From positions 1,240,001 through 1,304,000 of the forward strand of contig NC_010168.1 of NCBI RefSeq assembly GCF_000018885.1: a stretch of 64,000 nt of DNA. Direction: 5' to 3'. The position numbers and the translations under genes were made by a program. The notes under the pieces are model-generated. The model worked only from the letters and a program-made list of their open reading frames with translations, made no database searches and had not been told where the DNA came from. The DNA is from Renibacterium salmoninarum ATCC 33209. Lineage in GTDB: Bacteria; Actinomycetota; Actinomycetes; Actinomycetales; Micrococcaceae. This document shows positions 16,599 through 18,642 of this stretch, piece after piece. Position 1 is the stretch's first letter. Every line of letters begins with the position of its first letter.

Positions 16599-17858
16599 TT
16601 AACGCATTACTGATGGTTCTCTGCGCTGAATTTTCTGCCGCATCAGTTCAATTGCTTCGGTGACTGGCAGGAGTTGAGCTGGCCGCGCGCCCGGAATACT
16701 GAGGCTCAGTTTTCCGGATTCGCTCTCTTGGCTGCCTACGACGGCGAGCCAAGAAACTCGCCGTTGACTTGTTTTACGCACTCGGGAACCGACGCTACCG
16801 TCGTGATCAACAATGACGCGGATCCCGGCGGCGAGAGCTTGCGCGCTGATCTCCGCACAGCGGGCTGCTTGGGTGTCGCTGACCGGAAGTACCGCGAGCT
16901 GTACCGGAGCCAGCCATGGTGGCATTTTCCCCTGATGCTTCTCGATGAGTAAAGCGACAGTACGTTCCATGGCGCCGAAAAGGCCTCGGTGCACCATCAT
17001 TGGTCGGTGCGCGGCACCGTCGTCGCCAATGTATGCCAAATCGAAGCGCTCTGGCTGCACAAAATCGAGTTGCACAGTGGACAAGGTTTCTTCTTTTCCA
17101 GCCGCGTCAAAGAACTGAACGTCAATTTTCGGTCCATAAAAGGCAGCTTCGCCAGCTACTCTGCGATACGGCAGGCCAAGTTCGTCCAGAGCGGCTTTCA
17201 ATACTGATTCCGCTGCGGCCCAATCCGAAGCAGAACCGGCAAAACTGGTGCCCGAGTCGCGAGCGGAGAGTCGAAAGTAGTCCGGTTCCAGACCAAGAAT
17301 TGAATAGCCAGCGCTGATGGCTTGGATGCCGCGGACCACTTCAGATTGAGCCTGTTCTGGGGTGCAAAATACGTGGCAATCATCCAGATTTATTTGCCGA
17401 ACACGACTTAGACCAGAAAGCACGCCAGAGAGTTCGCTACGGAACATGGAGCCGAGCTCAGCGTATCGAATAGGCAGCTCGCGCCAGGAGTGTGGGCGAG
17501 CGGCAAAGAGCATGGCATGATGTGGACAATTGGCTGGCCGGAGCACCAATTCTTCATTGCCAATTCGCAGTGGCGGAAACATATCTTCGGAGAATTTAGC
17601 CCAACGCCCACTGCGTTCGTAGAGTTCTCGTTTTGCCAGCACCGGGGAATACACGCGCTGGTAGCCACTCCGTAGTGACTCTTCAACCGCGAGTTTCTCT
17701 AATTCAGTACGAATCACTGCGCCATCAGGCAGCCAGAGCGGCAGCCCAGGACCAATAAGGGGATTAGAAGCAAAAAGGTCCAGCTCTCGGCCCAATTGGC
17801 GATGATCAGCCAACGCCTTGGCCTGGTCAATATTCGATTGGTCAACATCGTTATTCAT
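16599..17858 (-). CDS. thrS: Short threonyl-tRNA synthetase lacking TGS and editing domains
   Basis: Class II aminoacyl-tRNA synthetase of 419 residues. Only the catalytic core (motif 1; motif 2 region RYAELGSMFRSELSG...RVRQINLDDCHVFC; motif 3 VHRGLFGAMERTVALLIE) and the anticodon-binding domain (WLAPVQLAVLPV to the end) are present. The N-terminal TGS and Ser-editing domains of the usual ~640-residue ThrRS are absent. The catalytic zinc ligands are kept: Cys in RPANCPHHA, His in DDCH, His in MVHR. The start ATG at 17858 has GAGGA 7 nt upstream; a longer in-frame reading to 17960 would run through the attenuator and is rejected. Expression is probably controlled by the Thr attenuator directly upstream. 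A full-length ThrRS presumably exists elsewhere. Confidence 0.9.
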   Translation of the reverse strand: MNNDVDQSNIDQAKALADHRQLGRELDLFASNPLIGPGLPLWLPDGAVIRTELEKLAVEESLRSGYQRVYSPVLAKRELYERSGRWAKFSEDMFPPLRIGNEELVLRPANCPHHAMLFAARPHSWRELPIRYAELGSMFRSELSGVLSGLSRVRQINLDDCHVFCTPEQAQSEVVRGIQAISAGYSILGLEPDYFRLSARDSGTSFAGSASDWAAAESVLKAALDELGLPYRRVAGEAAFYGPKIDVQFFDAAGKEETLSTVQLDFVQPERFDLAYIGDDGAAHRPMMVHRGLFGAMERTVALLIEKHQGKMPPWLAPVQLAVLPVSDTQAARCAEISAQALAAGIRVIVDHDGSVGSRVRKTSQRRVSWLAVVGSQESESGKLSLSIPGARPAQLLPVTEAIELMRQKIQRREPSVMR

Positions 17859-17908
17859 AATTTCCTCAGGGTTTTTTGTGAAGTGCCCTAGGAAACGACG
17901 CCAGAAAC

Positions 17909-17938
17909 AAAAAGGCCCTGGGATTGTCTCCCAGGGCC
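17909..17938 (-). terminator. Attenuator terminator in front of thrS
   Basis: On the minus strand, a perfect 10-bp stem (GGCCCTGGGA / TCCCAGGGCC) with loop GACAA is followed by TTTTTG. It lies 22 nt after the stop of the Thr-rich leader peptide and 50 nt before the thrS start, so it would stop transcription before thrS unless disrupted. It also serves as the natural end of pncBA transcripts. Confidence 0.9.
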
Positions 17939-17941
17939 TGA

Positions 17942-17994
17942 CGGTGTTATTTGTTCGCACTCACACCGATGGACGCCGGGGGTGACCCGACGTC
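17942..17994 (-). promoter_or_regulatory. Alternative RNA hairpins of the thrS attenuator
   Basis: Two competing structures can be drawn on the minus strand. Hairpin A pairs GACGTCGGG (17994-17986, overlapping the third Thr codon) with CCCGGCGTC (17980-17972), 9 bp with one G-U. Hairpin B pairs CGGTGT (17968-17963, touching the leader stop) with ACACCG (17947-17942). B can be extended by GGC/GCC and CCC/GGG pairs that reach into the 5' arm of the terminator, so it is a candidate antiterminator. A ribosome stalled at the Thr codons would block A and leave B free; a ribosome at the stop would block B. Hand-drawn; no folding energies were computed. Confidence 0.6.
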
Positions 17995-18020
17995 GTCGTG
18001 CTGAACTTGAACAGATGCAT
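17961..18020 (-). CDS. Thr-rich leader peptide of the thrS attenuator
   Basis: A 19-codon open frame starts 4 nt after the pncA stop codon: MHLFKFSTTTSGHPRRPSV, then TGA. It contains three consecutive ACG threonine codons (17999-17991), the hallmark of a ribosome-stalling leader peptide, and is followed by the alternative hairpins and terminator ahead of a threonyl-tRNA synthetase. Translation could start by re-initiation from pncA or from the weak GTAGAG 7 nt upstream. The match between codon identity and downstream gene (Thr codons, ThrRS) is the main support. The peptide itself probably has no other function. Confidence 0.75.
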   Translation of the reverse strand: MHLFKFSTTTSGHPRRPSV

Positions 18021-18024
18021 GCCG

Positions 18025-18642
18025 TTACTCTACAACGAGTTCGACGCCGGCGTCTGCCATCTCTGCCAAAGCTGCTTCCGAGGCTTCGACATCCACACCG
18101 GCGCACAAGTTCACCAAAAGCCGCACATCGTAGCCAGCCTGGATTGCGTCTAAAGCGGTTGCGCGAACACAATGATCAGTGGCGAGTCCGGCGATGGTCA
18201 CCGTATGTACGTCATTTTCGCGTAGCCAATCGTCCAAGCTCGATCGATCCTCGCTAGTGAGTTCTTGGCTGGCTTTCGCCTCGCCTAACGGCACCTCTAG
18301 ATCTGCTGCTAGGATGCCCTCGAACCCCGAATATGCAGCTGAAAACTGGCCTTTTCGGAAGTAAGCATCAATGTACTCTGCGTCCAAATTTGCATGCAGC
18401 TGGGCTCCGCGTGAACCTGCCACGCAATGCACCGGCCATGAATCTTGAAAATTCGGCGTCTCAGAGAAATGTGAACCGGGATCAATGTGCCAATCCTGAG
18501 TTGCTGCCACCACATCGAACTCGGTGGCGTCGTCGAGCAGCTCACTGATTGCGGTGGCAACCTCAGCGCCGCCGTCGACCGCAAGCGAACCGCCTTCGCA
18601 GAAATCGTTCTGCACGTCCACGATGATGAGAGCTTGTGCCAT
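18025..18642 (-). CDS. pncA: Nicotinamidase (pyrazinamidase)
   Basis: Hydrolyses nicotinamide to nicotinate, the entry step of NAD salvage feeding PncB. Cysteine-hydrolase landmarks are the catalytic Asp in IIVDVQNDFCEGGSL, the metal-binding DWH...H in ATQDWHIDPGSHF, the catalytic Lys in YFRKGQ and the nucleophile Cys in GLATDHCVRATALDA. 205 residues, slightly longer than average. The start at 18642 has GGAGA 6 nt upstream; an earlier in-frame start would overlap pncB. It lies 29 bp after pncB on the same strand, so the two form a salvage operon. With nadB broken in this window, this route is probably essential for NAD supply. Confidence 0.95.
   Translation of the reverse strand: MAQALIIVDVQNDFCEGGSLAVDGGAEVATAISELLDDATEFDVVAATQDWHIDPGSHFSETPNFQDSWPVHCVAGSRGAQLHANLDAEYIDAYFRKGQFSAAYSGFEGILAADLEVPLGEAKASQELTSEDRSSLDDWLRENDVHTVTIAGLATDHCVRATALDAIQAGYDVRLLVNLCAGVDVEASEAALAEMADAGVELVVE

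What the first reader, a model, noticed from the sequence alone, without database searches (positions are those of the whole stretch)
17909..18020. Threonine-codon leader peptide and attenuator in front of a threonyl-tRNA synthetase
Seen: between pncA and thrS lies a 19-codon frame with three adjacent ACG (Thr) codons, a 9-bp hairpin overlapping the last of them, a CGGTGT/ACACCG hairpin ending at the stop codon that can extend into the terminator's 5' arm, and a perfect 10-bp G/C-rich hairpin plus T-run before thrS. Known: attenuation by stalling at codons for the cognate amino acid is classic for trp, his, leu and ilv operons. In actinobacteria, T-boxes and trp/leu/cys-type leaders have been described. 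Inference: thrS is turned on when Thr-tRNA is scarce. I am not aware of this control for an editing-less ThrRS in this family.
Basis: partly seen in the sequence, partly recalled or inferred. Interest (0 to 1): 0.85.

Follow-up and report, generated by a model that had tools for sequence, protein, structure and literature searches.

The report
Threonine-sensing switch for a spare synthetase
A short threonine-rich mini-gene in front of a spare enzyme that loads threonine onto its tRNA very probably acts as a starvation sensor; it is conserved across actinobacteria, and the spare gene almost never uses the threonine codon that its sensor reads.

Summary
Confirmed and extended. Of 82 loci of this ThrRS and its relatives, 78 carry an upstream ORF with Thr-Thr-Thr; the 4 without are two contig ends and two long-type enzymes. 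Controls: 0 of 20 canonical thrS, 2 of 32 distant homologues. New here: (a) leaders use ACG for 226 of 234 Thr codons, the regulated genes for 6 of 710, a Thr-specific purge shared by three leader-bearing full-length thrS genes; (b) a covarying helix between the terminator's 5' arm/loop and a downstream segment that can also cover the thrS ribosome-binding site; (c) a WblC/WhiB7-type promoter motif, exact in 24 of 73 loci, not in the window. All 79 searched genomes with the short ThrRS hold a second ThrRS. Prior art: thrL of S. lividans. No expression data; folding allows only a kinetic switch and its controls are weak.

The parts
18027..18032 (-). candidate -10 box TAGAGT, 6 nt before the leader ATG (overlaps the end of pncA)
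   Evidence: TANNNT within 3-11 nt before the start in 73 of 78 loci, 6-7 nt in 70 of these, 10 nt in 3
17961..18020 (-). leader ORF, 19 codons plus TGA, MHLFKFSTTTSGHPRRPSV
17991..17999 (-). three adjacent ACG (Thr) regulatory codons
17986..17994 (-). P1 5' arm (region 1) GACGTCGGG, overlaps the last two Thr codons
17972..17980 (-). P1 3' arm (region 2) CCCGGCGTC, also 5' side of the antiterminator
17942..17968 (-). apical hairpin CGGTGT...ACACCG, tip of the antiterminator
17929..17939 (-). terminator 5' arm (region 3) AGGCCCTGGGA
17913..17923 (-). terminator 3' arm (region 4) TCCCAGGGCCT
17905..17912 (-). T tract TTTTGTTT of the terminator
17885..17896 (-). region 5 GTTTCCTAGGGC: 12 contiguous pairs (2 G-U) with 17937-17926 of the terminator 5' arm/loop, or covers the thrS ribosome-binding site
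   Evidence: read; folds; family-wide complementarity and covariation
17860..17871 (-). region 6: CCCTGAGGAAAT holding the thrS ribosome-binding site GAGG (17867-17864), paired with region 5 in the OFF fold
16602..17858 (-). thrS2: 419-aa threonyl-tRNA synthetase without TGS and editing domains
   Evidence: the genome's other ThrRS is 39% identical

Best explanation
A leader-peptide attenuator that controls an auxiliary, editing-less ThrRS. Transcription probably starts at or within a nucleotide or two of the leader ATG (inferred from the -10 position), so leader translation starts as soon as the RNA emerges. If the Thr-tRNA that reads ACG is charged, the ribosome passes the three ACG codons and reaches the stop codon, covering region 2; region 3 pairs with 4, transcription ends, and any read-through RNA hides the thrS start in the 5:6 hairpin. 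If it is uncharged (Thr shortage, or the main ThrRS inhibited), the ribosome stalls on ACG and masks region 1; region 2 pairs with 3 before 4 is made, the polymerase reads on, and region 5 can then pair with the loop side of region 3, which would hold off the terminator and keep the thrS ribosome-binding site free. The thrS2 mRNA itself almost lacks ACG and is poor in Thr, so it can be translated in the state that induces it. Shown: leader ORF, Thr codons, hairpins, codon purge, conservation, covariation of 3:4, 3:5 and 5:6. Inferred: stalling, antitermination, kinetics, the start site, and which stress matters.
For: 78 of 82 loci have the TTT leader; the 4 misses are 2 contig ends and 2 long-type enzymes. 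Controls 0 of 20 canonical thrS and 2 of 32 distant homologues, against 78 of 78 in the same test on the short-type loci. -10 box before the start in 73 of 78. Masking the Thr codons raises expected 2:3 pairs from 1.0 to 10.6; at least 3 pairs in 77 of 78 masked against 7 of 78 free. Covariation scores above all 500 shuffles for the terminator, 3:5 and 5:6. Model R1: 63 hits at E up to 1.1e-5 in 394 class genomes, 59 before the short thrS, 3 before a full-length thrS that is the only match in its genome, 1 at a contig end; 58 of the 63 were training sequences. Leader ACG 226/234 against thrS2 ACG 6/710; no such split for seven other amino acids. Each of 79 genomes with the short enzyme has a second ThrRS. 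The zinc ligand positions C334, H385, H511 and also R363 and Y462 are kept in 78 of 78.
Against: At equilibrium the terminator hairpin forms in every state (mean pairing 0.93-0.95), so the switch can work only kinetically. 2:3 pairing is partly composition: shuffled region 2 still gives 8.6 pairs against 10.6, and only 19 of 78 loci beat at least 19 of 20 shuffles; by longest run, 2:3 beats 95% of shuffles in 11 of 78. P1 and 2:3 show no informative covariation. A simple T-tract test passes in 41 of 78, so termination is doubtful in many Streptomyces-like loci. Computed accessibility of the ribosome-binding site hardly changes (0.28 in both states over 77 loci; higher by more than 0.2 in 3 of 78). 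5:6 complementarity beats 95% of shuffles in only 13 of 78, and two of its five shuffle measures are not unusual (70 and 272 of 500). Rows are related by descent, which inflates shuffle tests. No expression data for the window.
Confidence: 0.87

Rival explanations
1. The leader mainly senses ribosome-targeting antibiotics: a drug stalls the ribosome on the Thr-Thr-Thr-Pro stretch, and uncharged Thr-tRNA is a secondary cue.
For: thrS2 is named in the WblC/WhiB7-activated regulon of S. coelicolor (PMC7157823, Table 1 passage); the WblC motif GAAAWY stands 32-34 nt before the -10 in 24 of 73 loci and at no other distance between 20 and 60 nt. A passage in PMC12121999 says chloramphenicol stalls ribosomes after Ala, Ser or Thr codons.
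Against: The conserved feature is the codon ACG, not only the residue (226 of 234), and the gene avoids ACG but not ACC, which fits tRNA charging better than peptide-dependent stalling. The window has no GAAAWY (best match 2 mismatches) and Ser, not Pro, after the Thr codons.
Confidence: 0.15
2. In the Streptomyces-type loci the element controls translation only: hairpin 3:4 is not a terminator but sets whether region 5 hides the thrS ribosome-binding site.
For: 37 of 78 loci fail a simple stem-plus-T-tract test; the S. lividans authors saw one hairpin but no U-rich stretch; 3:5 has the strongest covariation, 0.283 against 0.205 shuffled, and 5:6 covaries too.
Against: Computed accessibility of the ribosome-binding site does not differ. 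The window and its nearest relatives L004 and L005 have a clean T tract. G+C-rich hairpins without T tracts may still end transcription in Streptomyces (recalled).
Confidence: 0.3
3. The auxiliary ThrRS is kept as an inhibitor-tolerant copy (borrelidin or obafluorin type), and the leader is its induction device; threonine shortage as such is not the selected signal.
For: At positions that contact borrelidin (PMC4389257, passages) the short enzymes differ from canonical ones: residue 381 Leu in 78 of 78 (Gln in 20 of 20 canonical); residue 489 Gln in 71 of 78, Leu 4, Met 2, Lys 1 (canonical Leu 16, Glu 4 of 20). Precedent: the auxiliary, antibiotic-resistant TrpRS of Streptomyces under attenuation (title seen in a reference list).
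Against: G463, whose change gives tolerance in ObaO (PMC11252418, passages), is unchanged in 78 of 78. The same leader precedes the only ThrRS matched in three genomes. The single ThrRS matched in G870 also has Gln at 489 although the only leader found in that genome lies on another contig. No inhibitor test exists.
Confidence: 0.4
4. The hairpin is just the terminator of the pncB-pncA genes and the Thr codons are chance.
For: The leader starts 4 nt after the pncA stop codon in the window.
Against: A pncA relative lies in the 1000 nt upstream of the leader in only 3 of 78 loci, the window and its two genus-mates, yet 78 of 78 have leader and hairpin. Controls are 0 of 20 and 2 of 32.
Confidence: 0.02

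Closest known systems
thrL-thrS of Streptomyces lividans TK24 (PMC8079986, passages and Table 4 seen)
   Same: Leaderless threonine leader peptide before a ThrRS gene; its exact peptide stands before the short ThrRS in two genomes.
   Different: Two Thr codons instead of three, and no U-rich stretch reported there; the passages seen contain no comparative analysis, codon purge, downstream helix or note that the enzyme is auxiliary.
Auxiliary, antibiotic-resistant TrpRS under ribosome-mediated attenuation (Vecchione and Sello 2010; only the title seen, in a reference list; Streptomyces coelicolor recalled)
   Same: Leader-peptide attenuation of a second, auxiliary aminoacyl-tRNA synthetase in an actinomycete.
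   Different: Amino acid, enzyme class and leader unrelated; whether that gene avoids its sensing codon was not examined.
Classical attenuators predicted at trpS and leuS in Streptomyces (PMC1262725, passages seen)
   Same: Leader ORF plus competing antiterminator and terminator before a synthetase gene.
   Different: That survey reports no conserved RNA structure upstream of threonine operons; the word thrS does not occur in it.
Enterobacterial thr operon leader (eight ACC codons, PMC1183508 passage)
   Same: Thr codons as regulatory codons in transcription attenuation.
   Different: Controls biosynthesis and uses ACC; here ACG senses and ACC is left for the gene.

Membership tests
Ribosome-mediated transcription attenuator | short leader ORF rich in codons of the controlled amino acid | tested here: met
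   78 of 82 loci with Thr-Thr-Thr; translation itself not measured
Ribosome-mediated transcription attenuator | intrinsic terminator between leader and gene | tested here: met
   window 17939-17905; over the family a T-tract test passes in only 41 of 78
Ribosome-mediated transcription attenuator | mutually exclusive antiterminator released when the ribosome stalls on the regulatory codons | tested here: inconclusive
   forms in 77 of 78 when masked against 7 of 78 free, but shuffled controls come close and covariation is uninformative
Ribosome-mediated transcription attenuator | read-through rises when the cognate tRNA is uncharged | not testable with these tools
   needs expression data
T-box leader | match to an Rfam model | tested here: not met
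   no Rfam family at gathering score in the window or in 10 loci
Threonine operon leader of Rfam | match to the Rfam family | tested here: not met
   (gathering score only)
S. lividans thrL type | Thr leader peptide of the MKRxxx..TTPxxVPAR kind, with a -10 box just before its start, ahead of the short thrS | tested here: met
   for relatives; the window's peptide keeps TTT, position and spacing but not the flanking residues
WblC/WhiB7 regulon promoter | GAAAWY 3 bp upstream of the -35 | tested here: not met
   not met in the window; exact in 24 of 73 loci with a -10, at most one mismatch in 47 of 73
Threonyl-tRNA synthetase | class II core and anticodon domain, zinc ligands | tested here: met
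   TIGR00418 above cut-off, PF00587 and PF03129; C334, H385, H511 in 78 of 78

The most novel reading that the evidence does not exclude
An isoacceptor-specific, self-insulated standby synthetase: the leader reads only ACG, that is one Thr-tRNA species, and the regulated thrS gene has been purged of ACG and thinned of Thr so that it is translated exactly when ACG decoding fails. The RNA is a two-tier kinetic switch in which the terminator's 5' arm is traded among regions 2, 4 and 5, so that one stall both prevents termination and frees the ribosome-binding site; in many actinomycetes it is wired into the WhiB7 drug response.
Probability: 0.45. Interest if true: 0.78.

Novelty: new variant of a known kind. 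Interest (0 to 1): 0.64.

Why it matters
It gives a clear natural case, over many genera, of the idea that a starvation sensor and the gene it controls should use different codons of the same amino acid: ACG in 226 of 234 leader codons, 6 of 710 in the gene. It makes the selective-charging theory directly testable outside E. coli. It also points to a widespread inducible second ThrRS in actinomycetes, linked by promoter motif and a published regulon to the drug response, which bears on how these bacteria tolerate ThrRS inhibitors. The covarying 3:5 helix suggests joint control of termination and initiation, which I did not find described for this gene in the papers that my searches listed.

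Tried and rejected
T-box or riboswitch: no Rfam match. Equilibrium folding as an explanation of the switch: rejected, the terminator wins in all states. Exposure of the ribosome-binding site at equilibrium: not supported. Covariation of P1 and 2:3: uninformative. P1 as the reason for ACG: it does not explain the first codon, which lies outside the CGCCGG arm in the Streptomyces-type loci yet is ACG in 73 of 78. General bias against G-ending codons: rejected by seven other amino acids. A His-rich N-terminal tail as a common feature: 7 of 70 tails (an eighth hit, L062, is an artefact of my motif). Other genes under the same RNA: of 22 model hits weaker than E = 1.1e-5, 7 were opened and none lies by a ThrRS gene; 15 were not opened. 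A first control with distant homologues (2 of 37) was drawn mostly from inside their coding region, so I replaced it (2 of 32, upstream of the frame). Literature: no paper held all of ThrRS, attenuation, leader peptide and Streptomyces.

Rows dropped or hand-set: L106, L125, L126, L127 left the 82; seven terminator hairpins were re-picked in a narrower range; start codons were chosen with preference for a -10 box, which favours the 73 of 78; the hairpin pick always returns some hairpin; the 20 canonical upstream regions were placed 655 codons from the gene end, not at an annotated start; the 94 neighbour ORFs were filtered by third-position G+C; one search reports a stop inside the L109 match. 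The class, order and family draws overlap. One search used a wrong folding constraint and is discarded; one search replaces it.

Full report
What is there. On the minus strand between pncA (stop 18027-18025) and a thrS gene (ATG 17858) lies a 19-codon ORF, MHLFKFSTTTSGHPRRPSV, with ACG ACG ACG at 17999-17991. GACGTCGGG/CCCGGCGTC folds over the last Thr codons, CGGTGT/ACACCG follows at the stop codon, and an 11-bp G/C-rich stem with TTTTGTTT precedes thrS. The region folds 5 standard deviations better than dinucleotide shuffles. The genome is one contig of 3,155,250 bases, which I recall as the size of Renibacterium salmoninarum, a fish pathogen; no call names it.

The gene. The 419-aa product is a ThrRS by TIGR00418 with only the catalytic and anticodon domains. 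The genome has a second ThrRS, open frame 742 aa, 39% identical. The short type occurs in 5 of 295 genomes sampled from the family (E up to 1e-100), 16 of 396 of the order (E up to 1e-95) and 63 of 394 of the class; two of the 63 (G893, G928) are long-frame, 41% identical, and not of this type. The E cut-off loses some: G739 has a short ThrRS with an insertion that the class search missed. Each of 79 genomes holding the short enzyme shows at least two ThrRS matches at E up to 1e-60. The zinc ligand positions C334, H385, H511, and R363 and Y462, are kept in 78 of 78.

Conservation of the leader. I scanned upstream DNA of 82 loci (L001, L004-L008, L052-L127). 78 hold an ORF with Thr-Thr-Thr; L106 and L125 have 57 and 109 nt of upstream DNA, L126 and L127 are the long type. 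Controls: 0 of 20 canonical thrS and 2 of 32 distant homologues, against 78 of 78 in the same test on the short-type loci. A pncA relative lies upstream in only 3 of 78 loci, the window and two genus-mates, so the leader goes with thrS2, not with pncA. A TANNNT box stands just before the start in 73 of 78, 6-7 nt away in 70 and 10 nt in 3; start choice favoured such boxes. Peptides are of the kind MKRAAMTTTPESVPAR. The S. lividans thrL peptide of PMC8079986 (passages seen) occurs in 2 of 343 genomes of one genus, both times before the short ThrRS. That paper reports leaderless transcription and no U-rich stretch.

Structure. On an alignment of 78 loci (A1) the terminator pairs in 83.3% of cells, covariation 0.147 against 0.087 shuffled. 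A helix I had not expected, between the loop side of the terminator's 5' arm and a segment downstream of the terminator (3:5), pairs in 84.7% of cells, score 0.283 against 0.205, 8 of 10 pairs with changes on both sides (reached by 18 of 500 shuffles), and scores 0.07-0.18 when slid. The downstream segment also pairs with the region of the thrS ribosome-binding site (5:6, 71.5%, 0.169 against 0.129; but its counts of changed pairs and of pair types are reached by 70 and 272 of 500 shuffles). The covariation scores of all three exceed 500 of 500 shuffles, but rows are related, which inflates this test. P1 and 2:3 hardly vary and give no information. Without the alignment, 3:5 complementarity beats 95% of shuffles in 51 of 78 loci, 5:6 in 13 of 78, 2:3 in 11 of 78. 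In the window region 5 offers 12 contiguous pairs with the terminator arm and loop (read; see the fold).

Switching. At equilibrium the terminator forms whether or not the Thr codons are masked, so the model must be kinetic. Folded just before the terminator's 3' arm is made, masking from the first Thr codon gives 10.6 expected 2:3 pairs against 1.0 in the free RNA; 77 of 78 against 7 of 78 have at least 3. Shuffling region 2 still gives 8.6 and only 19 of 78 loci beat 19 of 20 shuffles, so this is only modestly specific. With region 4 kept single-stranded and region 6 not yet made, 3:5 forms (at least 4 pairs) in 77 of 78; in the full-length RNA in 27 of 78, and the ribosome-binding site becomes clearly freer in only 3 of 78. 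Control of initiation is therefore suggested by covariation, not by energy.

Codons. Leaders use ACG for 226 of 234 Thr codons (70 of 78 leaders ACG ACG ACG); the 78 thrS2 genes use ACG for 6 of 710, and 74 of them never. Canonical ThrRS cores in 20 genomes: 65 of 328; 94 neighbouring ORFs: 739 of 2267. Thr content is 2.2% against 4.0% and 5.7%. G-ending codons of Pro, Ala, Ser, Val, Gly, Leu and Arg show odds ratios of 0.66-1.76 against 0.034 for Thr. In three genomes (G876, G975, G995) the leader stands before a full-length ThrRS, the only match at E up to 1e-40; the last 655 codons of those genes have 0 ACG in 67 Thr codons against 145 of 630 in the 22 other canonical genes counted. PMC1183508 (passages) gives the theory: the regulatory codon should be read by the isoacceptor that loses charge first. 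The window's thrS2 has 0 ACG in 9; six window genes including it have 31 in 124. Whether one tRNA alone reads ACG in these genomes was not checked.

Specificity. A covariance model (R1) gave 63 hits at E up to 1.1e-5 in 394 class genomes: 59 before the short thrS, 3 before full-length thrS, 1 at a contig end. 58 of these were training sequences; G739, G870, G876, G975 and G995 were new. Of 22 weaker hits, 7 were opened; none is by a ThrRS.

Role. thrS2 is listed among WblC-activated genes in S. coelicolor (PMC7157823, passages). The WblC motif GAAAWY occurs exactly in 24 of 73 loci, all 32-34 nt before the -10, and within one mismatch in 47 of 73; the window lacks it. Residues at borrelidin-contact positions differ from canonical enzymes: 381 Leu in 78 of 78, 489 Gln in 71 of 78 (positions from PMC4389257 passages), while G463, decisive in PMC11252418 (passages), does not differ. 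Gln at 489 also occurs in full-length enzymes of G870, G975 and G995, and 4 of 20 canonical enzymes have Glu there. An inhibitor-tolerant standby enzyme is plausible and untested.

Verdict. Observation confirmed, interpretation supported, mechanism likely. The concept is known and a Streptomyces example is in print; the breadth, the ACG/ACC split and the 3:5/5:6 tier were not in the papers that searches listed and whose passages I saw. The library holds only open-licence papers.

Noticed in passing
L053-L055, L068, L070, L077, L080 and other relatives, about 45 nt before the leader ATG: GAAAWY motif at fixed spacing upstream of the leader promoter, the published WblC/WhiB7 signature; exact in 24 of 73 loci, absent in the window.
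   Followed up: yes
L181, L182, L183: In three genomes the Thr leader stands before the only matched, full-length ThrRS, whose gene has no ACG codon in its last 655 codons.
   Followed up: yes
L179: This short ThrRS carries a tandem GERLG repeat insertion about 90 residues from its start.
   Followed up: no
L180 (G870, contig C18 end): An intact-looking Thr leader and hairpin with no ThrRS match on the fetched stretch; the genome has one ThrRS match, on another contig.
   Followed up: partly
canonical ThrRS in L134, L135, L137, L138, E. coli positions 308, 488, 489: These 4 of 20 canonical ThrRS have Arg, Phe and Glu at these positions instead of Gly, Asn and Leu.
   Followed up: no
window 17960-16602, minus strand: The thrS2 frame is open back to a GTG right after the leader stop codon, through the terminator; probably fortuitous.
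   Followed up: no
L095, L119, L115, L116, L107: Some short ThrRS start with a His-rich tail in place of the lost N-terminal domains (7 of 70 tails with at least 4 His).
   Followed up: partly
G977: This genome has a third ThrRS match, 45% identical, 681-aa frame.
   Followed up: no
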